NCBI GenBank assembly: GCA_034620365.1
Contig: JAQGEQ010000083.1
Span: 368,990 to 432,989, forward strand
DNA length: 64,000 bases
Direction of reading: 5' to 3'
Source: Pegea sp. RAD2-039
Lineage: Eukaryota; Chordata; Thaliacea; Salpida; Salpidae
How positions within the stretch are numbered: the first letter of the stretch is position 1; every line of letters starts with the position of its first letter. The translations under genes were made by a program, and so were the position numbers. Positions 568-33,700 of the stretch are shown one piece after another. The notes under the pieces are model-generated. The model made no database searches and was not told where the DNA came from. It worked only from the letters and a program-made list of their open reading frames with translations.

Positions 568-709
568 TGCAGCGTCACTTGTGGCAAAGGCTGGCAAAGA
601 CGTGTAGTCGCTTGCCGAAGCTCAGATATAACAAACAGCACACCTTGTAATAAATCTGAAATGCCACCAAATCTAAAGAAATGCTTCATTGAATGCAATC
701 AACATTTTG
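568..709 (+). CDS. ADAMTSL: ADAMTSL exon 1 of the window: C-terminal part of a TSP1 repeat
   Basis: Begins CSVTCGKGWQRRVVAC, the classic cysteine core of a TSP1 repeat. The preceding tryptophans must be on an upstream exon. Further cysteines at the end (KCFIEC) close the repeat. Acceptor CTTACAG, donor G|GTATGA. Phase 0 in (first codon TGC), phase 1 out. Confidence 0.85.
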
Positions 710-3700: not shown

Positions 3701-6700
3701 TATACACAAATTCTCTTAAATTGTGATACTTGAGACCTTTTCAATACCTTTCCGTTTGTATTGTTTTGTTTTTATTCGCTATAAGAGCTGTTTAATCAGT
3801 TACTAGTAGCCATGTGTTTGATAAAATCGATGATTCCAATATTTTATAATAAGTTTATTTATAAATTTAATCTATATATGATATGTTTGCAACGAATGAA
3901 ACACGAAATTTAATTTCTATTAGCTTTTAATAACGAGAAAAGAAATTAGTTTCAAACAAAGTAATTTATTACTAAGTTGTTATTATAATTTCATAGATGT
4001 AATGTAGCAGTTAATCAACTTACCAATAATAAGATATATGCTTAGATTTTGCAAAAAAATATAGAAAAATTCAAATCTGAATTTTGAAAGATAATTGAAT
4101 AACGTGAAAACAAAAAATAAATGTCAGTATATAATTGGTTAGATAAACTAAAAGCAAGCTCTCATATTGGAACATAAATCTAATGTTAGTTCAACTTAAA
4201 AATTACATCAGAATAACAAAAGAAAAGAAAATGCGATAAAATTGAATTTACTTATTATTTTATATAAATAACTTCAAGCCTAATTTTAAGCAATTTTATA
4301 CATCAAAAGTTATATCAAAAATATTTGCAAAAATAATTGTGCTTACAATATAACAAAAGTTATAAGGTTACTTTGTTAAAAATTATAAAGCCACATGAAA
4401 CTTGTGTAATCAACAAATTAAAGGTAAATAGTGAATAAATTAGAATAAATAAGAAAGTTTTAAGTAGCTGCTTAGAAGCTATAATTTTACAAAAGTCATT
4501 TATAAATTACTATTGATAATTATTACTGATGTATCTATAAAATGTGTCTATGAAAAATCAACTTCATTATTTAAGAAATAAGTACATAATTAAATGTTTA
4601 TAAAAATAGCCATGTTATTAATTGTTTATAGTTTAAGTAATCTTTTGAATTTTATAAATGATAGTTACCTAAAAAACTACAATTTGATTAAAGCTATGGA
4701 AACAAAAACTTACAATATATTGATATTATACTTGCTTTTTATATCTTTATCGTATTTTAATTGTAAGATATACTTCTTGAGTTAATGAAACCATTTTCAA
4801 TGTATAATGTAAATGCAAGAAATTTACTTTTTCAAATTGTATTTATTTTATACCTATCTTTTGTCTCAAATACTCCTTGTGTCTAAGAACTGTTACAAAT
4901 TTTGCATTAAGCGATAAAATTTCTTTTGAATGTTAATTAACTCTTAAATACATTTTTGTAATATTTTTCACTAAAACTAAACAAAGATATTCATTGAGCT
5001 TATATTTTGAGCCTAAATTAGATGGTAAAGTTACTACACGTACTTTTTATTTATGTAACCTCAGAATAAATTTTTATAATGTAAACTATAAGGAAGCAAA
5101 ATTATACTAATTAGATAAATTATATTATAAAAAAGTTTTCCTTCAAATATTAATCTGCAATTGTTTTAGCAAAAACCGGTTTCCTGTTTATAAGAACCGA
5201 TTAGAAATAAAAAAAACTTGAGTTGTAATAGAGTTCTAAAAAATTTTTAATTTATATTTAGCTCTTATTTGTAATTTCTTACACGTGCGTAATCTTAGAT
5301 ATTAATTCCTTAATTGTAAACTTTATCTGAATTAATATAATTTTTTTAATTATTCAAATAATTTTTTAATTAAATTTTCTAAGATAATTAATTTTGACTA
5401 AATTTTATGAGATTGTGAAACAAAAATGTTTAAATACTTTTCAGGCTTTCAAATATCGATATCAAGATGTTTTCACTCGGATACAAACCATCTCTCTGCA
5501 GATGAACGTTGCAATCAGCATGAAGTCTTAAGACCACGCATCAAATCGTGCCAACTAGAAGAGTGCCCAGCAATTGTCAAGGGAGCTAATGGAAGCAGGT
5601 TAGTGTGAATCTAATTTAAAAAAAGTATACACTGAGCTAATCTGCTGTATCAAGATATGTAAATGCCAGATGATACCTTAAAGTAGTAAAAAATTCAGAT
5701 ATCATGTCAGTTTATTTTCAACTTTTGAATAAGTAATTTTAAAATTATTTGTCGCTGATACAGATCATTTTACCATTACCTTCATTATTTGCTACTTGAA
5801 GTATGCAAACAATTTTAATTTTTTGCATGAAAGCCCATATTATTTAGTGCTTCTACATGAGTAGCAAGAACCTTTATAACATGTCACTACTATCTTAATT
5901 TCTTTATTTTTATAAAAAGTTGTTTTTCTAAAGAAATTGTTTTTAATACTAAAATAAAGTTTACTTTTAACCAAACAAGTGAAGAAACGTTTTCGGCAGG
6001 AAAATTATGTTCTAAAAGCAACAAAACCTTAAATTAAAAAAAAAACAATTTATCTAATAGAAAAATAAGTAAGAATCTTACAAACTAGTTGAATGATTGA
6101 TTGATTGCAATAAAATTGTTTTGAAAAGCTTAAGTAAACGAAACGGATTTCTAATAAAACAACAATAATTTTTTTTACTTCAGAAATAGCTGCTGAAATA
6201 AATTGCATCAATATTAAGTTTCCATTTACGAGTTGCTTCGTTCAACTTTTCTGTATACCCTTACTACAATTTTTTAGTGAGCTCTCTGTTTAATTTGAGT
6301 TCATTTGAGTTAACGTTTGTACCATTTAGTATTTGATTACTAGAGTTTTATAAAATGCAATCCAAATTCTATCATGATTAATCTGTGTTTTAGCTTTTAT
6401 AATTAGTTTGTTATCTTGCACTTAGATTTTGAGAAAAAAAAAATGCTGTTTGGTTTGTAAATAGGAAAGCAGTGTTAACGGTTTATTAGACAAACAGTTA
6501 ATTATTGCTCAAATAGATAGTAAACTTCAAACAAATACTTTAAACTGCGTTCTAAGCTAGACCCGGTTATTTCACATTTTAGCTTTTTTTATTTGAGCTT
6601 ATTTATATGTGTAGAAATGTTAATCTTTATATAGCATGTGGTGTTTGAAGTTTTATACTACAGCTTTAATTCGGATTCATGAAAGATATAATAGCAGCTG

Positions 6701-9700
6701 ATAAATTAATTAAAGCCTTTATCTCATAAGATAAGCAGTCACAACACACAGCTGGAAGTTTCTTGCTTTAATTTAAATTTAAACATCAATTCATGCATGC
6801 AATTCGTCTATCAATTTTATCAAAGAAAAATTATATCGTTTGATGCTGCTTACTTAAAGTTCCAATATCAAAATTCAACATTAGATTGCTTTTATATTCC
6901 ATCACTTTAATTGTTTAGCGTAATTTAATATTTTATCTCATTTTATTATTTATAATTTAATCCTGAAAAAGACTTTGTACCAATATATTTATCGAATTTA
7001 AATTCTTAAGTAACTTTGATTTAACAAAACAAAATTACTTTTAAAGCAAAAAATCAATTTTTTAGAAGTTTTAAAAATAAATAATTCTAGTTAGAAGCTA
7101 GTTTTGGCATTTCTTACATAAAAAAATAAACGAATGCCTAAATAAAGTTTCAAAAAATTTTAATTATGTAACTTTCTCAAAGTAGATTACAACTTTCATT
7201 TTACTATCTAAAGTTGTCTAAACAACCGATTTGTTTCTAAATACACGGCTACTTATTCTTTACATCAATGGGATTCCACCACAAAAGTATGGGTTAATAA
7301 TAAATGAGCTGTAAGCTTCTGTGGAGAGTTTCATATTGCCTACGTCAGTTAGAATTTCTAACATAAGCCACAGTAGCTCAGTTTTAAAGTGAACTATGTT
7401 TAAATAACGAACAATGAAATAATACAGATGGTTTAGTATTAAAAGAAAAAGTGATCGAGTAATGACAGACTCTTTGTATGAAAATACATTTTGTTGACAA
7501 GTTCTATACCTACCTTAGTAACTTTACTCAATTGATTTCAACTACCAGTAGAGCAAAAATTAATAAAAGGTTCGCTCAACTGTAGAATTTTATTTGTAAT
7601 TTTGTTTAGAAATAGAGCTAAAGTATTACATTGAAATTAGAAACTAATATTGTTGCTTTTATTAAAGTTTATTCATGTACTGAGCACATTACTAGATTTA
7701 GTATTCCAGTTTTACAAGATACACCGTAAGTTTTTCCACTAATTTTTCTAACTTTGAATTACGAGTTTTATTTTCCATATGTGTTTCCTATGTTTAAATT
7801 ACTTAAAAGTAATTGTTTTGTACCTAAATTATTTCAATATTGATCTAATAAAGATTAGTTTGAAAAAAAATGCTTAATGACAAGTAAGTTTTCTTATAGA
7901 CAACAATTTAAATATAATTAGAAATAAAAATAAAATATCCAAAAATCGATTCAAATTGAATGCCTTGCTGCTGCATAAAACTTAAAGTATGTGAATGCAA
8001 GATAAGTACGTGAACTTTGTTATCAAATTGCTGTCTATGTAATGATTAATGACAGAAACATAAAGATCAGAGATCACTAGTAAGTTTGGAGTTTGTAGCT
8101 TATCTTGTGATTTTCGAAATTTTGCAGAAAATATTAAGTAAATTATTATTTATTATCATAATTATGCCAATTTTGGTTTGGCTTTACTAACTAATTCTGA
8201 TGTATTTTGTTGTATGAACAAAACAAAATGTTTGCAGACAGAAAAGTTTAAGCTTATTCATTTTCTTGTTATCATTGTTGAATCTTATTTTACATTTGTT
8301 AAAATCTTTTGTGTTTATTGTTTTCCAAAATTTAAAAGCATACAATTTGAAAAAAAAAATCATCTAAATTAAAATTTGCTCTTTAAAATTTACTATTTAG
8401 TTTGACTCTTATGTTTTATGATTAATTTATAAGACACAAAATTGATTTAAATAAAAACGTTAAAGACAATCACGAACTCATTACCACATTATATGAACTT
8501 TTTAATTTGTACCTATAAATATTATTACTTAGCAATGACCAACCCAATAAAAACTAGAGTCACTGATTGGACAATTATGGTCCAATAACACAAATTAGGA
8601 GAGTTGTGACAGTATAAAGCGGCCCTCAACCACAATGGCAGCTTCTCTATAAGCTAACTGTAGATCTAATACCTCACCCTTCCTTTTATTTAGTGCGTGC
8701 CTTTGACATAAATTAAAAGAATATTGTATGGCTGAGATTATAAGATGTTCAATGATAGAAATAGTAATCACAAATGAAAGCACGTAAGTAAACTTTTTCA
8801 TCGACAATATTCGTGTTTAATGAAATGATTGCTGACAAAACAAGTTACTTTTCTGGTTCAAACATGATTTCATGGACTAAAAACCTTAAAGATAGTGTTG
8901 TAATGACAAATTATACCATTTTCAACGACCAATTTTTATTGTGTAAAAATCTATAATGAATCCGACATTTTTATACATACATACTTAGAGTTATAAGTTA
9001 GATCACTTAATGTCTTTTTCTCTCTTTCTTAACGTCACATTTACTTTCATCAGAGCTTTAAACGCTTGCATGACTTTTGTGTTTGTTGATGAATGATATA
9101 TCGTTTTTGTTACTTTCTTTTTTTCTATAATTTTGATTGCCAGTTCTTTATATTTTCATTGAGGTTCTACACTATATAGTATCTGATGGGTTAAGGTTGC
9201 AGTTAGTTGACAATTAGACAAACATTGTGAGTAGAATTTTATACAACAGTAGGCCTTTTGAAGCTTAGTCATTATCTCTTTTAATTAAATATCAAAGAAG
9301 ATTATGCCGAAGTTGAGATTGTAAGAAAATGAACAATCTACCATTTAATATTTTTATTATGCTTATCATTTTTAAACTAAATTGTTAAAAGAAGTTTTAT
9401 TATTTTATTATTACTTTATATTTTGAGAATGTAGAACAACTTGTAAAGATTTCAGAGCATAGATATATGTTTTATTACTGCATGCTTATACTTTATTTCT
9501 CTTATTTGTATGGAAACTATATGGAATAAACTTGTGCTTAGTAGTTTGTAAATGAAAACAGCAGTTTTTGAACTATCTTTAGAAAGAAAACCCAAATAAA
9601 CATTCGAAACCAAAAGTAAATAAAAAAAGGCTTGTTGAGAAACTGTCATGGTTTTATGGCTCTATCAACAACTATCAGTAGTAGAACTCTAATTTTTTCA

Positions 9701-12700
9701 GATATGGGTGCGGTGATCTTCACTTCCAAATGCTTTTCTTTGCACAAAGATTCAGCTTGTTACAACAAAGTATAGTGTTTACCTAACTAGTGATAAACTG
9801 CATCTTTCATTCTAATAAAAAACGAAATTCGACAGCATTTAGTAATAAAATCAAAAGTCTGTAAACCTTAGCTTGAGACCGTGTATTAACTTCATCAATT
9901 TATCACTCACTTGATTGGTTTTTGATTGACGAGCTAAAAGCTCAATTTTCCGCGCCAGCAGCTGGTCATCACAGCGTGGCGAGCTACTCTTTTATACTTT
10001 ACTGACCAACAAGTTGGTGATTTTTAAATGAAAAAATGTAGCAATAGTTTTGGTGAAGGGTTGTTAAGCAAGCAAGAAACAACACAGTATGTTGTTTAAC
10101 AAGAGTCTGAGAAACTATTTGTTGCTCACTAGCGCTCATGAGTGAGAGAGAGCGAGAAAAGAGAGCGGAAAGGTGGGCTAGGACCAAGATTAAGTGAACT
10201 GCTGGTGATGCGGATCGAACGAACAAGAAGGCCCGGCACTACTTAACCCTGTCCGCGTATCAGCAAATAACCTGTTACAGTCACTGCTTTAGTTTAGTGC
10301 TGAGTGTTAGCAATGTGCAAACCCCATTCTCGTAATTTCGGAATATTACATCAGAAATATTTTGTTTTTTTCGTAACTGGTGTGTGGCGTACACACTTAT
10401 TTGTTCATTCACTTCACGATGTTACGTGCGACGTATTTTTGTTTGTATGAGGCTTTTTACGTCGGAGGCTATATACGGGTGCACTTTGAGAAAATCTGCT
10501 TAAGTTTGTAGTCTGAGCTCATTTAATTAACCTTAAAAGGAAAGAGTTTTTGCTAAACAAGTTAATGAAGAAAGAAAATTTGTCACAGCTTACAAAATTA
10601 TACAAATTAATAAAGAGAGTTATAACTTGTAGCAAAGTCATATTTAAGGCTGTTAAATTATTTGGCTGAGATGCTAAATAGTACGTAAAGTGCACTTTTT
10701 AAACAGATATTTATTTTTATTTTTATATTTATTTGAAAATGTGTTTATATTTTAGTTATATTCCAGAAAATTATGTTGGCCGTGCACGAATTGTTTAAAC
10801 ATTTTTATGTTAAATTTCATGCAATACCAAAAACTTTATCGGTTATACTTTTACATATATAAAATTTTTGCCAAGTTTTTGATGATTTAGTCTTATGGCT
10901 TCAATAATTATTTGTAGAATTCATTTTAGGCTAAGCTCTCAGAATAACATCAAATAAAAAAAACTAAGCATTCCTTTGAGTTGCTACCAAGTAAAACCAA
11001 AGTTATACCATCAAATTTTTAACAATAAGAGAAACGTCTACCAGTTATTTTTTGCTCCTTTACTGAGGGAAGAAAAAATGAATCTCAACAAAACATCTCC
11101 CTAAAAACAATCAAATACATTTACATGCTAAAGTACAAAAAATGGCGTCAAGCAAAGCTGTTTGAAGATAATTACAAAACTATTAAAATTTACTTTTAAA
11201 TTTATGCGGCGACAATTTTGTGTGATTATTTTTATATGAAATATATTTATGCCATAAAAATATTTGGAAGAAAAATAATTTTACAAGATATCGTAGTTTG
11301 TTTTAACATTGATTTGTAAACAAGAGATATAGTGTAAGACATATATTGAAAGCTTGTAAAGCTATTAATTATTGCGTTTTTGTAAAGTTCTAAATTACTG
11401 CAATTAAAGCTTTTTTGAGTGATTTGAAAACTCACCTTTTTTGTATTTGAAGTAATTTTTGAATCGAATAAAAACAGATTAGATTTGTTATTATTAATTT
11501 ATTTATTGGATTTTTCTATTAGAAGTTTGGTTTACATTTCAGTATTAACAGGGAAGTAATATGAGAAAGTTTTGCAAAACTCTTGAGAAATTGCAGTGAA
11601 TTTTGTTCAAATATTCTTTCCTTGTTTTGGTTACTTTGGATTATATTTTATTAAAATATAAAAATCGAAAAAAAACTGTCCTTCACAAAGTTAATTATAA
11701 ACTTATGAATTTTTTGAACCGCTTCGGTTATTCAATTTTAGATAAATATAAATAAACTTGACTTAACATCAAAGGATTATCAAGAACTTTTCAAGTGCAA
11801 AGTTAATTTCAATTTTTTAATAATTTTTTTACAAGAGAAATTTCATCTGAAAACAGCAACCTTCATTTGCTGAACATTTTGTAACCTTTAAAATAATCAT
11901 TAACATTTTCTTGTTATTTTAGTCAGTTACATTTCATCGGCTTTATGCAACAAACTTTGATTTAGTAGTAGTGTTAACGCTGTAGCAGTGAATATCAATT
12001 AACTCAAAACACTATTTCATTTGCAGATTTAAAATAAAGATAATGATTGTTAACTTAAGAGTTGATATAAAATTGTATGTACCCCTGACAGATGAACTCT
12101 TGTTTCTAATGTACTCATAATAGTACTAATAAATTTCTTGAAAATCAATGATAATAATTAGCGATGAAAACTATATTTTCAGCAGATTAATCATACATGA
12201 TTATCCAAAAATCAGTTTTTGAAAAGTTAAGTTTGCTAAATAATTTTTTAATAGTTGTTGAAAGATATCAGTCAACTTTGTGAAGCGAGCAAAACAAAGT
12301 AAAAGAATTAGAAGGAAGTTTTGATGCTTATCGCTTCCGATAGCTGAGATAAATAAGTCGGATTGATTGCTTACGCGTTAAAAAATCTGCAGACAATAGC
12401 TTTTTAACTTTAATATTGTTACAGTCCATTTTAGACACGCTTTTCACAGGTTTTCATTCAATTACGTTCTAATAATATTTGTCAGAAATAATCTCTTTAA
12501 ATTTTTCTCTTTTGCATGCAGTTATGTATAAAAAGCTGATAAGAAGAATAAAAGTGATATTAGAAAGTAGATTTGCGTTTTTATGCAAATCTGTTAATCA
12601 TACATCTTGTAGTAACAATTGACATGAATAAAATGCTAGCACTCATCTTGGTTTGGATTACTGTCCCAGCATGGGCTGTAAACGACTGCAGTTATTCAAG

Positions 12701-15700
12701 TTTTGAAAATTGTGTACAAACTTCTTCTGATGATGCAAGCAGCTCTTCAGAAGACACTAAAAGAGATACGACGAGAAAATCAGCGTTAAATATTCTTGCA
12801 AGGGAAGTGGAATCACGGTTTCAAACACAGTAAGTAAGCATCACGCAAAAGTTATTCTATAAAAAGTTTGACGAAACAAAATAAGCATACATTCTCTTAA
12901 AACACTTTTTTGCAAACATAAAGTTTTCTTAAAAATCTACTTATTTCAAAACCAAGTTTTGAGAATAAGAAAATTTCATAACTGCTCCACAAGACCACAG
13001 ATTTTGACTTACATTAACAAACTTGTAAACGTTTTATTGTAGTTTAGCCTGTTAGATTTAACCTGTTGTTATGTTAAGCAATTTGTCAATGGGCAATGGC
13101 TACTATAAAGCTTTTAGTGGCGTGAATTTCTGCACTAGTAGTTCAAGCAATCCAAGCCACCCGTTCTTTTATTGTGACGCGACACAACAATGCTCTTAAA
13201 GCGAATCTATTTTAATGCTGATTCAAACATATAGACAGTTTTTCTTAAAGAATTTGTCTACTTTATTAAGATAAAGTTGAAGCTAATTTTCATTAAAATG
13301 GTATTAATCGCTTGCAATTTATTTGATAAATTGAATTGAGTGTATAGTTCAAAAAGCAACCAGTATTTTTAAAGCGTATAAGCTGGTAAGAATATTAACA
13401 ATTATTGTAACTGAATGTTGTGAACTTTTTGTATTTGCAAGCTTTAATAAGAAGTAAATAAAGTTGATTCTTAAAGGTGCGTAAGATTTGGTTAGACATG
13501 ATTGTTGGTTTTAAATTTAGAATCATAAGGTTTTATTTTTCTAGCTGCTACTAATACCGAAAAAACTGCTCTAGTATAAAGAGTTTATCTAAAGTTTTGA
13601 GTATCTTAACAATTTTAAAAGTTAAGGATAATCTGAAGATTTTTGTTTACTACTTTTATTAAGCTAACTATAATAAAATATTCTTTCATCTTGCAAACTA
13701 AATACCAGTCTCTCATGTAAGTACATAGATATTGCTTGCTCTATTTTCGTATTAACTCTTTATTAGCCTAAACTTATATTTAATCTAGAACACAAAGAAA
13801 TGAAATTGCTGTTTCAAAGTCTCAATCTTATCAAGTGTTAATTAAAATTTAAAACAAAAAGGTCATAATATTCTGGGAAATAAGATAAGTTTCTAATAAT
13901 AATTTTGAGCCAACTGTAAAGCTACAATTCAAGTTTGTAGTATCCGTATATTTATTGCTTTTATGAAATTGCTGCTTTCAATATTAAAAAAATAATTTTT
14001 TAAATTGTAACAATACTTCATAATTTTAAAATCTCTTGCTTATTATAATCACATATAGGTATCAACCATAGGTGTTATTGCATCGCTGTATATTATGTTT
14101 TATCGATATGTTTTCTGATATTAACTTTTATATATGAACAATTTCTTTAATTCCTTAGATGTTTAGTTAATTTCATGAACCTAACTTTTATAATGCTACA
14201 GCTTTATGTAGTTCACGCTTTAAAAGAAATGAAGAAATAAAGAATTTGAATTATTATAAATCAAAAACAGAGACTGATATAACACTTAAGATTTAATTTT
14301 TGGAATTTTTAAAATATTAAAAACTATTAAGAAATCAGCTTGACTTTATGAAAATCTTAACATACTACTTGTGTTATCATCTCAAACATAATCAAACCTC
14401 ACTTCACTGAGGTAACTTTGTTATTGATCATTTTTATACACCATCTTACATCTTAAGAAACAATTATATCTAAATATCAAACAATAATCTTGAAATAAAA
14501 ATCATACCTCTTATAGAATATTGAACTGTTATATTATCATTCTATTATTTTTATGTCTATTGCAACATAAGAGCAAACCGAAAACTTTCTAAAACTCGTT
14601 GAGGTAATAACTACCCTCACTAAAGTTTTGTTTATATAAAATCTATTTTTAAGATGTAAATGCTATATAACTATTAAACGCTTTTTAACTATTAACGAAA
14701 TTACAATAAAGACATTACAACTTTTGATTTATACAGCTGAACATTTATTTTCTAAATTATTACCAGTTCAACCCTTGTTTCACTTTTAATTTGTCTAATT
14801 TAGTTAATTAATTTTTAACGCAAAGTAATTAGTTTTTGTTTTATGAAACAATATAACTACATAAAAATATAATTTATTAAAAGTTATCTAATTTCAATTA
14901 ATCAACTGTAAACAGCTAACTTAATAAGCTTAAGATGATTGATTCTCTAAAAAAATTGAAATATAAGTAATTAGGAGAATTTAGAAATACATCAAAGGCT
15001 CAGAGTAAACTTGATTAATTTACATTTTTAGGCAGCAAATTTTCAATTATTTATCTACTATTTTCTTATTTTTCAATAAATACTCAAGCAATTTTATAAA
15101 GTATAGAAATAAGAAAATGATAGATCAAACAATATTAATATAAATTTTATTGTAGTTTCTATATATAAGTCACATTTGATGAGCGATGTTTGATAGGCTG
15201 TCATATAATTGCTAAGAATTTAGCCCATTTATTCTTTCCAATATTTCCTTAACTGGGCTTATAGTCAAAATTATAAACATTCAATCACTTTTAGCATATT
15301 TATTGATAATATATTCTTAGTATTACCTAATAATTGTTGAGAAGTTGCTACCAAAAGAGTTCTTTTGATTATTAAACAGCTCTAAAAAATATCATAACAA
15401 GAAAGATTACTCAATTTTTAACTCTAAAATATATCCAGGAAAATTCTTATGATAGCATTAGATATCGTAAAAATAAAATTAGATTAAAAGAGTTTTGTTT
15501 TATTAACGTACTGGTGGATGATTTTTCTGAGCAATATGTTTTCATGAATTCCTTATAATTAAATAACTATATAACTATTTAGATAACTCATAGCAAATTT
15601 TCTTTCGATATCATAATTCTAATTCAATAAAATTGTCAAAAAATCATAAAAATTTACTTGAACTTTGTTGCTAGAAATATCATCTTTTATTTTCTATGCT

Positions 15701-18700
15701 TAAATAATAAACAAATTATTTTGAAGTATAACAGCATCATTTCAGAAATACTAAATTACAAGCTTATATTTCATTTTTTATAAAAAAGTATTAAAGTTAT
15801 TGATATGCTCGATTACCAAAGATTTCTGTATTCCTAGACGTTAGCACATCATTTCAAAATAATTGCATCTGATCTTAAATAGTAGTTTTAAAGCTTGGTT
15901 ATTGATATAAGCTGAGTTAGCACAGCCTTCTTAGGACATAAATTAATCTTGTTAGAGTTGAATTTCATTCGGTTTTCTAGTTTAAAGATCTCTTTATCTT
16001 GCTCTTATTCTAAAAATACTATTTTCAATTGTTAATAATATTTGATACTAAGATTATTTTTCATTGTGTTTTTCGTTTTTAAATATTTGCAATTTTATTG
16101 CAAAAGCTGAAACTATAATTAAATCATTTTTATATCACGTGCAGAGATTTAAAGACAAAAGAAAATATTGCGCAAGTATTATTGCTCTTAAAATTTAATC
16201 TCGCAAATATTTTTATTTGAATTTTTAACCCTATGAAATTATATCGCCGCCAAAGCCCCATTTAGAAAGTTAGTTAGAACGCAATTTTTTGAAAATGTTT
16301 TAAAAATAGATGGAAATATCAAGATAAAGTAATAAAATATAATAAGTGAAAATTGTTTAAGAATAGTCTATTAATAACGACAAAATCAATTGATCAAAGC
16401 AAGAAAATTTTTTTTAAATGAAATTTTTTATTTTTAAAAGTCATCTGAATAAACAACTAAAAGATTATAATTATAAAAACTTTCTTCGTTTTTAAGATAA
16501 AGATTTGTCACTTTGATTTGTTACTTTTTCAATTAATATATCAAAAGTCTATTGATTAAAACCATTTTTGAGATGTATACGAATGTCATTAGTATTATTG
16601 CATAATTTTGGTGTTTAGAATAAAATTGTCATCTAATCAAATAATTTAATAGTCTTTCAAATCCTCAATTTATTTTCAGTATTTTTTTAACTTTTTATTT
16701 GATTTAAATAGTAGAATTTACAAGATGGTTATTTGTACAGCAGTAAAGCTACTGCTACGTCATCTAACCATTAAAACGTTTTCGAATGATCAAATAAATA
16801 TTATATTGATAATTCTATAAATTAAATGAGTTTATAAAATATCTAATGTTTCTTACAACTTATTAAGTCTGCTATAAAAATTTTGAACAAACGTTGTAGG
16901 GGTAGTTTATAAAAGAAAAACTTATTTTTCATAACTTCAGAAAGTTTATACTTCGTATAAAAATTATAATACTAAATTTTTATACAAAATTAAAGTTATC
17001 ACCATCACCCAGACAACATCTTGGAATAAACCATCTATTAACAACAAAACGTTTACTTTTTAACTGTTTTTGTTTAATTTATAAGCTAACCGATCGTTAT
17101 TTAAATCTGTTTTACGAATAAAGGTAGATATTAATACACAAAAATTAATTGTGTTTAGCAATAATTATTCAAGTATTTAAAATACTTGTCGTAAGTAATT
17201 TTTTTATTGGTATAAATCGATAATTGCTTTAACAGAAAGCCTAAAACTTTCAACTGTATTTATGATGTACTCGGATTTTGAAAACAGTTTCTGTATCAGT
17301 AAGAAAGAAATTTTCCAAAATTTAATCTGCACAAAAATGATTTTTCCTGGACTTTAGTTTCTTACTGATAACTATTTAGAGAAGTATAATTTTGAGAAAA
17401 AATTATTGGATTTATAATTAAATGGAGCTGTACTCAATCTATCTTAATCATAGTTGGTCTACATCATGATGAAGTTTAAGAAAATTTACTTTTTTTTAAG
17501 CTTTACTTATCTAATTTTATATTTTAATTGAAATATTATATTTAAATTATAAATACTTACAGTGAAAGATTTATTATATTAAGCAGGATTTATCTTTTTA
17601 ATATCATAATCAAAAATCAATTTTAGTACTTGCTTCGTTAGCTTCAAAATTCGATTATTGAAATTATATTCTAATTACTATCATTTGAATAAATATAAAA
17701 AGTTAGTTGATTTATAGAATTTAAACTTCCTTGAGTTATTCTTTCCCTAAAAATCAATTCAGTGAAGAGCTTATACAGACTGATGCCAAGTAAAACGTTA
17801 TAATCTTACTAAAAATGTATTTCAAATTTTGTTGATTCGTTGTTAGATGTCTATTCTATTCATAAACTTTCTTTAGTGACTCACTTCAAGAAATTCATGG
17901 ATTTTAACAAGCCAGCATATAATGAAGTTTAGTCAAGTCTTTAGTCAACTTCTTACATAGGCTTTTTGTCGTTTGATTTGCTCTTTGCATGTGTTCTGTC
18001 ACTGGTGGTTACACATGGTTGCACTCGGCCACAGTAAAAATGAGTTTAAGCTAAAGCAAGCGCAAGCGACGCTTGGGAAAACGTAATGTCGGTTTACTTT
18101 CGGTTTACTTTGTTTTATTTTCTTATCTTTTATTTTTGCTCTCTTTTTTGGGGTTTAGTTTTGGCCAGATGATTGTAGAGTCGAAATCCGTCATGACATT
18201 TCGAAATACTTATTGTCGAACTTAAAGGTCCGTGACACTGTAGTTGGTAATCTGGAAGTTTTGGTTATAATTTTTGACTAAACTTGACTTTGTGATCTAA
18301 AGTCTTGATACTTTAATATAATCCTTATAAAGATTTACAGATACAAAATTAGATGTATTTTTTGGTGTTTTAATTTAGCTAGGAACATTTCATAGAACTG
18401 TGGAAATATTATTTGATTATAGTTGTGATTAATTTCAAAGATAATTGTCTTTGTTGTTAGATTTTATATTAGGTCAAACCCAATAACTTGTTTGGTATTA
18501 CTTTATCCATTTAAGGAATTTTTAGCTCAAACGTCAGTTGAAATATTGAAACGGAAACTACTTAAAGTTGTGATAGGTTAGTTGCAGAAAAGTCTTCATT
18601 TGAATAAGCTCTTCTACTATTCAAATGAGCATATACATCAAGAGATTTAAACAATAACTTTGTTTAATGTAGAATAATAGAATTATTAAATAGGTTAATT

Positions 18701-24700: not shown

Positions 24701-27700
24701 CAAATATTTAATGTGAGTTGTAAAAACAGGTTTTTCTTGGTAAAAAAAATTAATCAACTTGTCATAGCATCTTCTTAAACTCTACCAGCAAGAAAATATA
24801 TTTAATGAAACAAAGTATCCCTTAAAGAAACTTTAAATCAGATAACTTTTCCAGAAAAGAACTTAGTCAAAATTTTCTAAATCAGAATATTATAAGTAAT
24901 TAAACTTAGTTATGGATGGCTCGTTTGTACAATTGGTAAAGTATCTAGTAAACAAGTTGCTAGTAAAAGAAAGCTAATGCCTACAAAGATTAGATAAGTT
25001 TTAAACAAATGACTGAAATAGTAAAGATAGACATTTAAACAAAGTAAAAGTTTCCTACAACTGTATGTTTTTACTTGGTTTGTTATTAACTTATTATTTA
25101 ATATATCAAGAATTTATATTCGATTTATACTTGGTATTTTTAGCAAACCAAGCAAGAAGTACTAAGAAAAGAATTAAAAAGCATTTTTTAGATAAAATTA
25201 ATTTAATTTTAACTTTCAATAATAACTATCAACCAGAACACAAGGCTGATAAAAAAATAAAGTTATAATAGTTAATCAAAATACTTAAACGTTTAATACT
25301 AATAATATCGTTAAGACTATAACTAGCAAAAATATGTTTTTATTAAACATATAATTCAAAATTAATGAAAAAAGCTTTCAATGTGTTTGTTTTTTTATTA
25401 TCTTGTTTTTATTGCATTTACTGTTTATGTACAGAGTTAAGTATAATCAGTGTTCATATTACCATACTTAAATGCTTACCTTAACATAACAAGGGTAGAT
25501 AGATTTTCTAATATAAAGTTTTATACTATAAATTCTTTAAACTATAGCTCAATAAATCCTTAAATTTGCTTAACCTATATAAGTACGGAAAATTATTTAA
25601 CAATAATTATTAGTTAAATACAATATTATTAGTCTCATATCATTTAACATAGCTTGTTACTTTATGCCAAATTATGAATAGTTAAGAATTTTTAATGGTT
25701 TATTATCAACTCATTAAGAGCTTTCTTCACAAAGATTATAAGGTAATCCAGTATGCTTCAGTTCGTAAGAGCTTGAATTTTTATCATAAGAATTATTTTA
25801 AAACTATTATTATATTAATACCCACAAGACTTTTCAATATCAAATTTGCATCAATCATGTTAAATAAAACTATAATCTTTCTTTTGAAAATAATTCTAAG
25901 TTAACATAAAATGAAAAACAATAGGTTTTCTTGATGATTTGTTGAAGGTTTTTATTTTTAAGAATCAAAGTTCTTAAAAAAGTCTTTCATTTCAGCTTAA
26001 GTGATTTATCCAGTCATATAATAAGGATAAAACGATTACGACATTAAATATATAAACGTAAACTCTTTAAGACTTAAGGATTCAAGACTAAATAATTTGC
26101 ATACAAATATTTTGTGAAAATAATTTTCTATGCAACTTTTTGCTTGTGCTGGTGTCTTACTGGTTAACTTTTTCTATATACCACATATATCAAATAAATA
26201 TAAATGTATTTAGGTAAAAATCAAGCTAACAATTTTAGACACTTTCAAGAAGCATTTGTAGTAAATCGTGTTTATTGTTAGTCAGACAGTTATTGAAATC
26301 TATCAAAGTTGTTGAATGAGATAAAAAAGTTTTAAGTAAACTTAATAAAATAAATGAGCCTTATAATTAATCTACAAGTATTTTCATAAGAAAGGTTAAA
26401 GCTTTACAATCACATTCCCTCAAAAAAGCTTTAGAAAAACTTAATTTTTGTGAGTTTTAGTTTTAGCAATTTAGTAGTGGCAAACTTAGATATTAATGAT
26501 GCATAACATAAGCTATTTAAAAGAAATGATATAAGAAATTTTGTTTAGTTACAAACCTGTTTTAATAACATTTTATTTTAACTGAAGTGAAAATTAATTA
26601 TCTCTAAATTGAAAGTATTATTAAATTAGTCCAGCAATTAATAAATACAAAGAACTACCTTTAAAGTAAACTTGTTAACTTTGGTTATTCTGTATATTTA
26701 TTTGTTTATTGATTTAGAATATAATTTGTTTGATAAAATATAAATAGATAAATATAGTACGTATTAGTAAACCATTTCAATATCATTTAGAGTAAAGATT
26801 AGTGTTTAATTAATTAGATTTGGTCAATATAATTCTGTGAAGTAGTTTAAACGGTAAACTTGTCGTCAAAGTAATAAGAGATAATCATAACTAGTATATA
26901 AACATGCTACATCATTAGAAAACAAACACCAAGCATTTTATCAAGATCATTTTCAAAGATCTGTAATAGCCTTTTTATGAGAATATTTTCAAATATCTAA
27001 ACATAAACTTTTAAATTAAAAATCTATTTTCTGGTCATAAATTTGAGTAGAAAATCATTATTCTAAAATGTTTAGTAATCCAGCTATGTTCGTTGATTTA
27101 ATGTCGTTATTGTTTAAATATTTTATAACGATGAACATGAACAGAATATATTAGTTTGTATCTCAAGCAAGCATAAAATTTACACTTCGTATTTACTACT
27201 ACAATCAATTAGGTCTGCTTCTATATTTTGGGGCTAATGAATGATAATTTGAGCTCAAAAAATTCTAGCACAAGCTATTCACAACTAATCGACCATTGCA
27301 TGTATGGTTTCTATTCAAACTGTGAAAATAAGGTATAATATATGATAAATAGTGAAACACTTAAAAAAACACATTTACAAGTAATTTACAGTGGTTAGTT
27401 TGTCTAAAAGCTCATTTTAAATATTTGTCGTGCTTTCAAGAATACCATCTCGAATATTAGTAACATATGTAAACCATTATTGCGCGAATATTAACCACTT
27501 TTAAAACATTTTTAGCTTTCTACGCTTTTGTAGCAAAAACTAGTTCTCAAATTTTACATCTTATACTTTGAAGTTATTCCTACGATATTTGCCAAAACTT
27601 TTTGCGAATAAGATTTAATCTTGTTTTAAATATTTCAAACGAAATTTAAATGAATCTGACTTTTATACTAATAAATATTTTAAGTTAATTACAAGGTAGC

Positions 27701-30700
27701 ATATACAACCTTTAAAATTATAACACTAAGCTTTTTTTAATTATTTATTCAAATTTTTTCACTCATATACGCAATTATACTTCCAAAATTGGAATTTATA
27801 CATTAATTTTCACTTAAATTATATACTTGTAGCTTATGCTCTTTTTTCACTTTTAATTAGCTATGGTGTAAAAAAGTATATCACAGATTTTTACTCACAG
27901 GTTGTTAAAAAATACTAAACAAAAGTACAACCATCCTAAATATAAAACACTTTTCTAATGATTCTAAATATTTATGAAACTACATTACAAAGTCGTGTAG
28001 CTATTAAAATTCTTAATCAAAACGGTTATTATCTAAATTTCTAATTTAATGACAAAACAAAGTGTAGAGATGGAACATGTATGTGTGTAAACTTTTTCTA
28101 AATTGGTTTATTTTTACAGATAATAAAAAAAAGAACTATTAGTTTTTAAACTTAACTTTTTTATTTCTCATTTCTGTTGATAGTTTAATTGTGAGTAAAT
28201 ATGTTAACTACTCCATCACCTAAGATAAATTTAAGTTTGTTTTTGTTTAGCTTTAATAAGGACTTACTTTATCCCTGCCACATTCATGTAATTATCACGT
28301 AAAATATTCAACCAAAATTAAATTAAACTGTTTTTAACTACTAGTTGTATGTAGTTAAAGAAATGATGATTTTCTATTTTAGTTTAATTAAGTTATAAAA
28401 GATTACTTAATTAATTTAATAATTACTGAAAGATAAGTTTCCTTGTAAGCGAAAGGTTGTATTATAAGATTTAAGTAATCATTTTGCATTTATATTTATC
28501 AACAAATTTAAGAGCTTATGAAACGTAAACATAAAATTAGATTATTATTGAAAAATTTAAAACTAATTATTTTTTAATTCTATTTGTATAAACCTTTAAA
28601 ATTAGAAGCTTACACGAGAATATAAATAAGAAATTTTAATTTGCATTGTTTTCAACGATTCAACCATGAAAAGAAATTTATTAAAGATTTTATATGACTG
28701 CAAAATAACTAACCGCTAATATTTACTGCTGGCTAATTTACTATTTCTACAAATAATATTTGTGTTATACCATTTGTAATAATAATGTTTATAAGTTATT
28801 TGGTGAAGAAAATAGCAACAATAAGTTAAAAATAAGTTTATAAATACTCTAAATATAAAAAGAAGTTGCTAATAAAGCTTTTTCATTCGATCGTGCGCGT
28901 ATACTATCAATCATGACCTGCACACAACAAGCAAGACGAAAAAAAAAGAAAAAAGGACTGAGATTTTATTTGTGTACCTACCTTAAAGCTGGTCAGATAG
29001 TCACTGGCGACTTACTAGTCGCGACCAATTTCAGTTATACAAAATAGCGTCGAAGATAAATTAATTCGATTTTTAAATCAAATATTAATTTTCATTTTAA
29101 TGATATTTAGCTAGAGTATATTTAGGTGCAAACTTTGAAAGATTGTAAATGATTAGTATTTTATTTCTTTAGTTTCAATGTTTATTTGAGGCTAGTCATT
29201 CAGTTGTCTTAATTAAAAGGAATGTTTATTTTTTAGAAATTTATTTGTAAGCTTCAAAACTATGAAAAATTTTGAAAATCCTATTGGTATATTCTCACGC
29301 TCGTATTTGGAAAAGAACTTTAGAGTATCAAAAGACGAACAATCAGAAACACACGAAAAACTAGAAGCTGACTTTTTTAACTTTTCATACTTTAGTAGAC
29401 AGCATGTGAAAACAAGTTTAACTCACGAAGAGACTATTAAAAGCTGTAACCTGATAAGTGTTCCTCAGTTCTCTAATCAATATAAGTCATTGATGAGTGA
29501 GAAAATAAACAGTTTATACAAATATACATCAATTTGTAGAAAGCAACAACGATATGATAGCAGCGATTTTTATCTAGAAAGTTTGCCTTCCAAGCTAGTT
29601 AGAAATCAAAAGATGGGGATCAGTTTATACTCAGTTGAAACTTCTTCAGATGGAAATATATCTTCTTTATTTAATAAGAAATCTAACTCAATCAAAGATG
29701 AAATGTCATCGCTCAACCATAGCTCCATTAGAATTAGTGAAAGTAGTCTCCTTTGCAAGTGTATTCGAATTATCCATAACCTTTCTTGGAATTGCTTTCA
29801 TTTCTTTACCAGAGTTGCTTCAACAGCTTGCGTTTTTAACAGTTTAAGCTTCAGACTTTTTCTCTACATGCTGATTGTCATCATTATAGGCGTCGATCTT
29901 TCTATATGTATCCCTATCAGGTGAGTTTCCACAGAGCAAAAATACTTTACTTAAACATCATAAATCTTTTGTAAGCTGCTTAATTTTTAAAGTCAAGTTT
30001 AGTTTCTTTGATAATATAGTAAAAATGCCACTAGTGACATAGTTCCGACAATTACTTTAGATTTATACATTATCAGCTACTTTGAGATTTTTGCAGAAAT
30101 TTTTTCGTTAATCATCTCTGAAAATAAGGTATTGAGGTAAAAAAAATCGCTGCTTCAATTGTAAATATTAACCACTAAAACTACAAATGGTATAATAATA
30201 CAATTGTAACTTCAAAACTTTTCAAATTCATCTTACAAATGAAGTCATTAAATTGGCAAGAGTAGTAATAAAGTCGACAAAAATCTCAAATATTATCACA
30301 CGAGTATACTACAATTACAGTCATACACACTTTTCATACACTACTAGAAAATTAGTAATGATACTTATAAGTTAGTTCTATCGTAAAACTTTAGTATTGA
30401 TTTTGTTGAATAATATTTTATAGAATTTTATCATTTCTGTTTTTATATTCGTAAAAGTAGCCTAATGTGTGCGTTTCCTTCATTAGATTTCTATAAAAAG
30501 TGTAATATGCTTTATTTGACTGAACTTTTTAATGTTTCTTAATTTTTTTGTCTAGATTTCAGACAAGTTATCATTATTGGTAGATTCACAAGACATAAAT
30601 TTGTTATAAAGTGATAAATTTTCAATTATAAAAAATTTAGTTACCTTCTGGAGTTACAATGCTTTGAATTTAAATTACTTAAGCTGCAACTGTGATAAAT

Positions 30701-33700
30701 TTTGCTACCCTAATGCCTTTTGAAATATAAATCAAATCAAAACTTATCTCTAGTAGTTTGCTTTTAAACAAAATTGATGAAAATTTCAAAGAAGCTTTAG
30801 ATTAACAATATATCACAATTTAAACAACAAAATATAAAAGCTCTAATATCGAGCAACTTAACATGTAATATTCAAAATCTCTCATTCGTTTTTGTTTGTT
30901 TAGCTAATGGATTTGATCAACAAATACTACTTTACCAAAATAAATTGCAAAATGATATGTATAAACACGAAAGAAAAGATCAAACTTATCTTTGTGGGTT
31001 TAGCACGCTATTAACTGTCTCGTCATTAATCAAACTTGAACAAAATTTACAATCAGCCTTCATAATCTTAAATTTACAACAAATAAACGTTGCAGTAATT
31101 AGTTACAAGCTAATATAAGCATTGATATACAACTACTATATTCTACAAGTAAAATTAAACTACAATTTTTCTAATAAGATATGAAAGGAATACGTCAAGA
31201 TTTTAATCAAATACTTTAACAATCTAGTGAAAAAACCAGTGACAAACTGATTTAAATTTAGTTGAGAAAAATTTAGCATCAACAAATAAAGATTAATAGT
31301 TTTTTTATGATTTTTTTTTATCTGATCAACTCTATAGTTTAATTCAAAGGTTTGACTATATATCTTTAATTTAGATGGGATATCGGATTATATGGAGAAT
31401 GCTCACAGACATGTGGTCGAGGGTCACGTGAAAGGAAAGTGGTGTGCAAGTACATGCCAGAGAGTGATGAAGTTGACCCAAGCAGAAAAGAAGAAATACG
31501 ACATGAAATAATGTGTCCATCACCCAAGCCAACTCAAACAGAACCCTGTGGCTTATCAGCTTGTCAACCAGAATGGGTTCCTATGGATTGGGGCAAGGTA
31601 TTTGATATCATAAAACTTTAAATCATGAGACTTCAGATTCGGTTACTAACTTCTGCTTAAAATGTTATTGTTTAGTGTTCGACTTCATGTGGTCGTGGCT
31701 TTCAAGAAAGAAGACATGAATGTCAACAGCTCACTGGAATGGGTGAAGTTATCAGTGTGTCTCCTAGTTACTGCCCAAAAGATTATCCCAGGGAAAGGAA
31801 GAAATGTCAGCTAAAAGAATGTCCTGCTCGTTACATCCCTGGAAAATGGAGCCAGGTTAGTTTAAGACAATAAGTATTAAAATACTGTTTTCTTTACTCT
31901 AAATTTTCTTGGTATTTGAGTAGTGAGTATGATTACAATGGAACTTATATGAACCGTTGCGATTACACTCAAACAATAAAAGTGTAAAGATCAAAAAACT
32001 TGAATAAATTACGTAAGAGTTTGAGATCAAGAAGAGATCACAGATTGAACTTCTTGAAATTTAATTATCTTTTAACTATGACAAATTGCCAAAACTCTTT
32101 TTGCGCTATCTTTGAACCATAACAAAAAACCTTTCAATCTTAAACTTATATATTCAATTTTGAAATAAAGATTTTTTTTGTTTAAAAGTTGTGATACTGA
32201 AAAAATAAACTAAATAATTTATTAAGCTAGATTTTAATTAGTTCATCGAAACATATTATTTCTATAAAAATGAAGAATCAATCTTTTATGATTTATTTGA
32301 TAAAACAAAAGTTGAAAGATTTATGAAAAATTCTAATCAATTTTCATGTATCAATTATTACAAAATTCAATTTGAATAATTTTGTTTTGAAGTCTCGAAG
32401 TCAACATTTACCAAAAATTTGCATTTTATAACATGTTTGAATTATCATAAACTGTATTGAAATCTAGTTTTTAAGCATCATTTATTGAAATAAGCAAGCG
32501 CTTAAAATAAAGAAACATTAAATTAATATATTCATCATTCATGTTTAGTCTTTGAGCACACAGCTTTTAAAATTTGATTGTTATTTCTGTTGACATTATA
32601 TCAACTATCCAACCTCCAAAGCAATGTTCACAATCAGACACTAAGCAACTCAACCCTGTCAATTAATTCACTAATCTACATCATTGAATAAACTTTATAA
32701 TTCAAATACAGTGTAAGCCACCCTGTGTTGGGAACCAAGGTACTCAGCGACGAAAGGTGTTTTGTAAGCGGTTTATTCATCGATTCAAAGCAATAACATT
32801 GCCGTTAAAACACTGTAAGCATCTTCAAAAGCCACTAGCGCAGCAAAGATGCCCTCTTGGGCCAAACTGTCAATCTAGTAAGCTATTTCAACTTAATTTG
32901 TTTATTTTAATTTATAATAGTAAACAAAGTTAAAGTTTCAACATTTATACATAAGCAAAATATCACGTATATGCAAAATGTTAATAATACCATAAGCTTC
33001 AATTTATTCAGGCACTTCAAGTCTGTCTACCAAGAATAGTTTGCCTTTTCGTTCTAAATTGTTTGTACAAAAAAAAGCTAGGGCGCGTCCACTATACCTG
33101 AAACTGCCTCGAAGAGCATTTTTACTTCCCGGAACGACACTTTTCGCACAGTGCATATTTAAAGGGTAAGCGATATTATTAAAATAAATATAAAGAAATG
33201 AACGTGCCTAAGACCAAAGAACCTGGACAATATTATCACATTAATGATTAAAAACGTAACTTACATGACTAATTTAGCAAGAAAAAAGCACACTTCAAAA
33301 ACCTACCTCAAGTTTCGATGTTTGCTTGTGGCTTAGTGCAATGCTTTCAAACTAAATAAAACAAAGTTTAATAATATGAACAACATTAGAAAAACTTTTT
33401 TGAATTTAAACAGTGATTGTTTATCTTTTTCACAATTTAATGATTTTTAAAAACACTTTTCATATAAACTTTAATATTTTGCTAATGGTTTTAGGGTGCG
33501 TCCTAGAAAAGTGCAATGGTATCACAAAAAGAAGAAAATAACTTCAAAAAGAGATCGAGTTATGGTAACTCCTAGGGGAGTCTTGAGAATATTTAAAGTT
33601 CTGCCTGGTGATATTGGTTATTATAGATGTTCAAATGGCCGTGCGCAGTACAAGACCCTATTTTTGTCAATTAAAAGTAAGTAAAAGACTGATTACAAAT

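What the first reader, a model, noticed from the sequence alone, without database searches (positions are those of the whole stretch)
5599..31374. One giant intron carries two independent, phase-matched alternative first exons of the ADAMTSL gene
Long-form exon 5, first exon A (12624-12829) and first exon B (29262-29920) all end in phase 2 and all join in frame to exon 6 at 31375, producing R, Q or R just before WDIG, the start of a TSP1 repeat. Each of A and B opens with an ATG, contains an ER-targeting hydrophobic segment and ends in a strong donor. The gene would make three proteins sharing the TSP1-Ig-TSP1-PLAC core but with different N-termini and different routes to the cell surface.
Basis: partly seen in the sequence, partly recalled or inferred. 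Interest (0 to 1): 0.85.

Follow-up and report, generated by a model that had tools for sequence, protein, structure and literature searches.

The report
Alternative starts of a punctin-like gene
A giant intron in an animal's punctin (ADAMTSL1/3-type) gene appears to hold a second start exon that would make a short secreted protein, as roundworms are known to do, and a second exon that could instead tether the protein to the membrane, but no RNA data were available to prove either.

Summary
The anatomy holds up. Exon A (12624-12829) and exon B (29262-29920) end in phase 2 like the long-form exon 5445-5598, all three join in frame to 31375, and every form stays open to one shared stop. The shared core has 7 TSP1 and 4 Ig domains plus a sub-threshold PLAC; the long form adds 6 TSP1 and an ADAMTS cysteine-rich domain: an ADAMTSL1/3 (punctin/MADD-4) layout.

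A is convincing: the only signal-peptide start with a GTRAGT donor in the intron, against 2 in 596 kb of strand elsewhere, neither in phase 2.

B is probably coding (235 open codons, donor ranked 1 of 1279), though its codon usage is at background. Its hydrophobic segment favours a type II membrane start exon.

Precedents are the alternative promoters of C. elegans madd-4 and agrin's secreted versus type II forms. A is a known kind of arrangement; B, if real, would be a membrane-tethered punctin. No transcript or related genome was available.

The parts
568..5598 (+). Five long-form coding exons (568-709, 1150-1237, 2935-3082, 3185-3377, 5445-5598) encoding the last TSP1 repeats before the giant intron; the last ends in phase 2
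   Evidence: Frame-continuous splice model; TSP1 hits. At least 9 further candidate exons upstream on the contig.
5599..31374 (+). Giant intron, 25,776 nt, holding A and B
   Evidence: The other 20 of 21 introns in the window model are 58-2,067 nt. No N in the window. No Rfam match at gathering score in the window; one row, E 0.46, in the intron at relaxed threshold.
9940..10480 (.). Non-coding GC/CpG island with a GAGAGAGAGCGAG run: candidate internal promoter and possible 5' non-coding exon for A (inference)
   Evidence: 10121-10320 is about 49% GC, the most GC-rich 200-nt peak without a through-running frame in the 324 kb examined; CpG o/e about 1.0 over the island. One match in the genome, itself. 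Two donor-like sites in the intron's top 10 of 1279 (10172, 10379), neither GTRAGT.
12522..12623 (+). Possible 5' leader of exon A: moderate acceptor-like AG at 12520-12521 and TATAAAAAG at 12527
   Evidence: Acceptor rank 75 of 1402; TATAAAAAG occurs 6 times in the intron, so weak evidence.
12624..12829 (+). Exon A: alternative first coding exon; signal peptide MNKMLALILVWITVPAWA (cleavage after A16 by my crude score, after A18 by eye) plus about 50 aa; donor GTAAGT, phase 2
   Evidence: Only signal-peptide-plus-GTRAGT-donor start in the intron; 2 such starts in 596,448 strand-bp elsewhere. GC 39% against an intron mean of 26%. One match in the genome, itself.
29237..29920 (+). Exon B: 684-nt open exon (ATG at 29262), Ser-rich 219 aa ending in a hydrophobic segment (LFLYMLIVIIIGVDLSICI); acceptor TTTATTTTTTAG, donor GTGAGT, phase 2-2; first exon or cassette
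   Evidence: 235 codons open; donor rank 1 of 1279, acceptor 15 of 1402; KD19 2.73. No second copy, Pfam or PDB relative found. Codon score at background, and the full exon scores only 3.5 in the exon scan.
31375..31597 (+). Shared acceptor exon: TSP1 repeat WDIGLYGECSQTCGRG..., the junction for all three forms
   Evidence: Pfam TSP1_ADAMTS; one DNA match in the genome, itself
31676..45931 (+). Remaining 16 shared core exons: TSP1 x2, Ig x4, TSP1 x4, PLAC-like end, stop; GC-AG intron at 43769-43826
   Evidence: Open in all forms; Pfam

Best explanation
This is an ADAMTSL1/3-type (punctin/MADD-4) gene with internal alternative starts inside one giant intron. Transcription from an internal promoter, possibly the GC island at about 10.1-10.4 kb, makes an mRNA whose coding part begins with exon A and splices to 31375. 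Its product is a short secreted punctin lacking the cysteine-rich and spacer region and the first six TSP1 repeats. Exon B is a real coding exon spliced to the same acceptor, most likely a second start giving a type II (N-in, C-out) membrane-anchored form of the same core. Shown here: open frames, phases, splice-site strengths, signal-peptide-like and hydrophobic segments, domain content. Inferred: transcription, promoter position, membrane topology, function. By analogy with nematode MADD-4 and vertebrate agrin, the N-terminus would decide where a synapse/matrix organiser is presented, and the dropped N-terminal domains would change what it binds. The part about A alone I put at about 0.75; the figure below is for A and B together.
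For: All forms are open to one stop. A-type starts are rare: 1 in the intron against 2 in 596,448 strand-bp elsewhere, neither phase 2. B has 235 open codons, with 5e-6 to 5e-5 expected in the intron at the stop frequency of the flanks or of the B region, and 0 of 20,000 Markov simulations of B's composition open; it has the best donor of 1279. Its hydrophobic segment lies just before the junction: 0.25% of random open frames have one as strong in the last 34 aa, 2.2% anywhere (judged after the fact). In the exon scan the two top rows in the intron are pieces of B and A, 19.8 each. The core has 7 TSP1 and 4 Ig, the long form 6 more TSP1 and a cysteine-rich domain. Nematode madd-4 makes long and short forms from alternative promoters; in B. 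xylophilus each form has its own signal peptide. Agrin makes secreted and type II forms from alternative first exons.
Against: No transcript; conservation untested, as no relatives were found. B's codon score is at background, its amino-acid composition is unlike the training genes, full-length B scores 3.5 in the exon scan, below one other place at 7.2, and no homologue was found. With B's own lower stop frequency (0.062) the expectation rises to about 9e-4 (my arithmetic). Some open frames of 140-151 aa elsewhere look antisense or low-complexity. B has a good acceptor, so may be internal. The charge bias favouring N-in is slight: net +3 in the 40 residues before the segment, +2 in the 22 after. 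A's donor is moderate (49 of 1279). COE-type and TAATCC motifs are not enriched.
Confidence: 0.5

Rival explanations
1. A is a genuine alternative first exon, but B is an internal cassette exon (29237-29920, 684 nt, phase 2-2) included after the long-form exon or after A.
For: Acceptor rank 15 of 1402 and donor rank 1 of 1279; A+B+core and long+B+core are both open to the stop; length is a multiple of 3.
Against: After a cleaved signal peptide the hydrophobic segment (KD19 2.73) would be expected to act as a stop-transfer and leave the disulphide-rich TSP1/Ig core in the cytosol. An ATG with A at -3 lies 25 nt into the exon.
Confidence: 0.2
2. Only A is real. B is a long but non-functional open frame, decayed or newly arisen, that is not spliced into the gene.
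For: Codon score at background and amino-acid composition unlike the training genes; full exon scores only 3.5 in the exon scan; no homologue found.
Against: 235 open codons are unlikely by chance here. Of 25 frames of 140 aa or more in 648,000 strand-bp, B is the 5th longest, and the other 8 of at least 187 aa look like protein-coding exons by eye. It ends at the intron's best donor, in the right phase. Two other exons of this gene score as low (3185-3377, 33012-33165).
Confidence: 0.25
3. A and/or B are exons of a separate gene nested in the intron.
For: Their donors could in principle join other acceptors in the rest of the intron.
Against: Outside A and B the exon scan gave 4 rows at 3 places on the + strand (total scores 7.2, 3.3, 2.9, -5.5) and 1 row on the - strand (-2.6). 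Its sensitivity was limited: 10 of 17 core exons found, two of the 17 lacking a GT donor. Both phases fit 31375.
Confidence: 0.07
4. Neither is used: chance coincidences in a long AT-rich intron.
For: No expression data; some features were tested after the fact.
Against: as above.
Confidence: 0.1

Closest known systems
C. elegans madd-4 / Ce-punctin (MADD-4L and MADD-4B/S), and Bursaphelenchus xylophilus madd-4A/B
   Same: Same family by architecture; in C. elegans long and short forms come from alternative promoters, and the short form is the C-terminal part with 7 TSP1, Ig and PLAC, without the cysteine-rich and spacer modules (PMC9083331, passages). In B. xylophilus both isoforms have a signal peptide, cleaved at A18 and A17 (PMC9427778, passages), as A appears to have here.
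   Different: Here 13 TSP1 and 4 Ig stretches (MADD-4L: 10 and 1), and the start drops 6 TSP1 (C. elegans drops 3; for B. xylophilus the paper says isoform B lacks one N-terminal TSP1). Whether the branch points are homologous could not be tested. No transmembrane helix was predicted in the B. xylophilus proteins (PMC9427778). Nematode SL1 was not found in this genome with up to 1 mismatch.
Vertebrate agrin (secreted NtA form versus type II transmembrane form)
   Same: Alternative first exons give a secreted or a type II membrane version of one synaptic organiser (PMC2874008, passages). This is the working model for A versus B.
   Different: Unrelated protein family; agrin's intracellular part is described as short, B's would be about 200 aa. 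Reported there, only predicted here.
Vertebrate ADAMTSL1/ADAMTSL3 (punctin-1/-2)
   Same: Orthologues of madd-4 (PMC11385328, passages); the layout TSP1, cysteine-rich, spacer, TSP1s, Igs, TSP1s, PLAC matches (vertebrate layout recalled).
   Different: Punctin (ADAMTSL1) is described as a short splice variant of a longer predicted form (PMC10850197, passages; that paper also lists alpha and beta isoforms of ADAMTSL6). No membrane form stood out in the rows listed.
Neuregulin-1 types I-III (recalled, not looked up)
   Same: Multiple first exons give different N-termini, including a hydrophobic N-terminal segment.
   Different: Unrelated gene family; analogy only.

Membership tests
ADAMTSL1/3 (punctin/MADD-4) | TSP1 + ADAMTS cysteine-rich domain at the N-terminal end, no protease domain | tested here: met
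   TSP1 then ADAMTS_CR_3 (23.7 bits, cut-off 21) in the joined long-form exons; no protease domain among the hits. The first exon was not found, so a protease domain further upstream is not formally excluded.
ADAMTSL1/3 (punctin/MADD-4) | Long array of TSP1 repeats interrupted by Ig domains | tested here: met
   6 + 7 TSP1_ADAMTS stretches, 4 I-set stretches
ADAMTSL1/3 (punctin/MADD-4) | C-terminal PLAC domain | tested here: inconclusive
   Aligned over the whole PLAC profile (1-31 of 31) but 16.5 bits against a cut-off of 26.4, E 0.014; no PLAC row when the whole A form was scanned at E up to 0.5
ADAMTSL1/3 (punctin/MADD-4) | Orthology by tree | not tested
   No animal sequence collection was available; filed by architecture
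madd-4-type alternative promoter system | Internal first exon with its own ATG and signal peptide joined in frame to the C-terminal core | tested here: met
   Exon A, at sequence level only
madd-4-type alternative promoter system | Transcription from an internal promoter | not testable with these tools
   No RNA; candidate island 9940-10480
madd-4-type alternative promoter system | UNC-3/COE and UNC-30/PITX sites near the start (COE motif recalled; TAATCC from PMC11385328) | tested here: not met
   COE pattern: 3 one-mismatch hits in the window, expected 1.2, none in the intron; TAATCC 19 against 25 expected, three of them within 1 kb upstream of or inside A. Not a necessary feature outside nematodes.
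Agrin-type secreted/type II switch | Alternative first exon with an N-terminal signal anchor | tested here: inconclusive
   B has a strong hydrophobic segment, but its first-exon status is not settled (acceptor at 29237)

The most novel reading that the evidence does not exclude
A punctin gene makes a membrane-tethered type II isoform with a roughly 200-residue cytoplasmic tail (exon B), beside a secreted short form (A) and a secreted long form. The agrin-like secreted/tethered switch would then have arisen independently in the punctin family of synapse organisers, at a single splice acceptor.
Probability: 0.3. Interest if true: 0.65.

Novelty: new variant of a known kind. Interest (0 to 1): 0.45.

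Why it matters
Punctin/MADD-4 isoforms decide which receptors gather at a synapse in C. elegans, and the choice is made by alternative promoters. If a similar start exists in an animal that is apparently not a nematode, isoform choice by internal promoter may be older or more recurrent in this family than worm work shows. A membrane-bound punctin would be a new mode of presentation, and both claims can be settled by looking for two splice junctions in ordinary RNA-seq.

Tried and rejected
Spliced-leader explanation for the acceptor-like sites upstream of A and B: a bdelloid SL (recalled, up to 2 mismatches) and nematode SL1 (recalled, up to 1 mismatch) gave no match in the genome; other leaders were not tested. 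Repeat origin of A, B or two GC-rich patches: each matched only itself in the genome, where the tool's counts are lower bounds; repeats inside the intron are short and imperfect. Known RNA: no Rfam match at gathering score, one row at E 0.46. Internal-exon reading of A: acceptors 12522 and 12670 do not keep the frame from the long-form exon through A into 31375 (worked out by hand). Species: size and GC resemble monogonont rotifers (B. plicatilis 106.9 Mb, 26.75% GC, PMC11954553, passages), but mean introns of Brachionus genes are 118-392 nt (PMC6555955, passages), shorter than most introns here, and no SL was found in B. plicatilis ESTs (PMC1925144, passages); not established. COX1 gave no match and an assembly-statistics paper search found nothing. 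Paralogues: outside this locus the core gave 5 weak matches (E 2.5e-7 to 7.8e-4, 32-37% identity). Relatives in viral contigs and genome contigs: none.

My first signal-peptide scan had a truncation bug and missed A; one search is the corrected one. That scan was designed after seeing A, and it did not find the long form's own first exon, so its sensitivity is limited. The codon model has little power: accepted exons of this gene score from -0.02 to 0.60. I dropped 7 of 34 training frames by eye (27 kept). One doubtful long-form segment (367994-368042, no GT donor where I cut it) was left out of the splice-site models but included in the Pfam concatenation; some exon of that kind is needed for phase between 367936 and 368158.

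Full report
WHAT IS THERE. The window is G000:C16:368990-432989 of an unnamed 105.7-Mb assembly; the window is 26% GC and its genes are animal-like. It holds most of one gene on the + strand. I rebuilt 22 coding exons in the window, from 568 to the stop at 45931, and list at least nine candidate coding exons upstream on the same contig. Pfam finds six TSP1_ADAMTS stretches and an ADAMTS cysteine-rich domain in the joined long-form part before the giant intron, and seven TSP1_ADAMTS and four I-set stretches in the part after it. The last 31 residues align over the whole PLAC profile, but below its cut-off (16.5 against 26.4 bits). By architecture this is an ADAMTSL1/3 (punctin/MADD-4) gene; orthology by tree was not tested. 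The frame near the end required a GC-AG intron (43769-43826): the nearby GT broke it, the GC donor restores it. The first exon of the long form was not found.

THE OBSERVATION. The intron 5599-31374 is 25,776 nt; the other 20 introns in the window model are 58-2,067 nt, and the median of all 21 is 522. The long-form exon 5445-5598, A (12624-12829) and B (29262-29920) all leave two bases, and the first base of exon 31375 completes R, Q and R before WDIG. A+core, B+core, A+B+core, long+core and long+B+core are each open to a single terminal stop.

IS A MORE THAN CHANCE? I scanned for an ATG followed by a signal-peptide-like N-terminus (a crude hydropathy and small-residue score of my own), at least 40 codons, and a GTRAGT donor inside the frame. 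The intron, both strands, gave one place: A (two nested ATGs). Elsewhere, 596,448 strand-bp gave two, both in phase 1; one, at about 63.09 kb, opens a fucosidase-like gene. That is about 0.09 expected for the intron's + strand before the phase condition. The scan was built with A in view, so the figure is indicative. A is 39% GC (intron mean 26%), its frame ranks second in codon score of the 63 open frames of at least 50 aa in the intron, its three-base periodicity is borderline (p 0.058), and it matches only itself in the genome. Its donor is moderate (rank 49 of 1279). The acceptor-like sites I examined (12522, 12670) do not keep the frame from the long-form exon through A, so A reads best as a first coding exon.

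IS B MORE THAN CHANCE? B lies in a 235-codon open frame. At the stop frequency of its flanks, or at the 0.0746 close to that of the B region, 5e-6 to 5e-5 such frames are expected in the intron; none of 20,000 Markov simulations of B's composition stayed open. With B's own stop frequency (0.062) I work out about 9e-4. Across 648,000 strand-bp, 25 frames reach 140 aa. B is the fifth longest, and the eight others of at least 187 aa look, by eye, like ordinary protein-coding exons; several of 140-151 aa look antisense or low-complexity. Its donor is the best of 1279 GT sites in the intron. Against this, its codon score is at background, its amino-acid composition is unlike the training genes, and the full exon 29237-29920 scores 3.5 in my exon scan, below one other place (7.2). 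Two accepted exons of the same gene score as low in codon usage, so the model has little power. No Pfam hit above cut-off, PDB relative or second copy was found.

Directly upstream of B's ATG is a good acceptor, TTTATTTTTTAG (rank 15 of 1402), and the frame is open through it. Exon 29237-29920 is 684 nt (228 codons) and enters and leaves in phase 2. B is thus a complete, symmetric exon that could be spliced in between 5598 and 31375, or between A and 31375, without breaking the frame. What argues for a start exon is topology. The segment LFLYMLIVIIIGVDLSICI (mean hydropathy 2.73 over 19 residues) sits just before the TSP1 core. After a cleaved signal peptide it would be expected to stop transfer and strand the disulphide-rich core in the cytosol. 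As the first membrane segment it could act as a signal anchor with the core outside. The charge bias for that orientation is slight: 4 basic and 1 acidic in the 40 residues before it, 5 basic and 3 acidic in the 22 after. A segment that hydrophobic falls within the last 34 residues of 0.25% of random open frames, and anywhere in 2.2%. This remains inference.

THE INTRON OTHERWISE. An exon scan (acceptor, open frame, donor) gave 8 rows on the + strand and 1 on the - strand. Four of the 8 are pieces of A or B, including the two top rows (19.8 each); the other four lie at three places and score 7.2 or less. The same settings found 10 of 17 core exons, so a missed small exon is possible. The GC island at 9940-10480 matches only itself, is non-coding and CpG-rich, carries a GAGA run, and contains the most GC-rich 200-nt peak without a through frame in the 324 kb examined. 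It is my candidate for the promoter of the A form, with a non-coding exon spliced to about 12522. This is inference. COE and PITX-type motifs, linked to nematode madd-4, are not enriched.

HOW IT PROBABLY WORKS. The long form is a matrix protein with the cysteine-rich region and 13 TSP1 repeats. The A form is a secreted short punctin keeping 7 TSP1, 4 Ig and the PLAC-like end. The B form, if a start, is a membrane-anchored version of the same short core.

COMPARISON WITH WHAT IS KNOWN. In C. elegans, madd-4 makes long and short forms by alternative promoters: MADD-4L has 10 TSP1, cysteine-rich, spacer, Ig and PLAC; the short form has 7 TSP1, Ig and PLAC. They cluster different receptors (PMC11385328, PMC7260190, PMC6920096, PMC9083331; passages). 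In B. xylophilus both isoforms have a signal peptide and no predicted transmembrane helix (PMC9427778, passages). So A is a new example of a known arrangement. Nematode SL1 was not found in the genome and the protein has four Ig domains, so the animal is probably not a nematode. Its size and base composition resemble monogonont rotifers (PMC11954553, passages), which I could not confirm. Both short forms retain seven TSP1 repeats, but the numbers dropped differ (6 here, 3 in C. elegans), and I could not test whether the branch points are homologous. A secreted/type II switch by alternative first exon is known for agrin (PMC2874008, passages). My searches for membrane-bound or alternatively started ADAMTSL proteins outside nematodes showed none in the rows listed (15 of 407 papers, 15 of 24; titles and abstract starts only, open-licence papers only).

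LIMITS. There was no RNA, no relative in the collections searched, and no animal protein database. Transcription, promoter position, topology and function are therefore all unproven.

Noticed in passing
window 9940-10480: Non-coding GC/CpG-rich island with a GAGAGAGAGCGAG run in an otherwise 26% GC intron, matching only itself in the genome.
   Followed up: partly
window 43769-43826: A 58-nt intron with a GC-AG (GCAAGT) donor is needed to keep the core frame; the nearby GT would break it.
   Followed up: yes
window about 59.2-63.4 kb: At least three tandem gene starts resembling alpha-L-fucosidase (name recalled; repeated [31 protein letters not shown]), near the contig end.
   Followed up: no
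window 28850-29080: CpG-dense patch (o/e 1.66) about 200-400 nt upstream of exon B's ATG; a possible promoter of B, untested.
   Followed up: no
window 17850-18150: Second GC-rich patch in the intron (about 40% GC in 200 nt), matching only itself in the genome.
   Followed up: partly
L009 and L010 (contig C16 upstream): Two neighbouring genes with closely similar KH-type segments (GK.G...RELR..TNTYI and alike), resembling MEX3 (recalled): perhaps a tandem pair.
   Followed up: no
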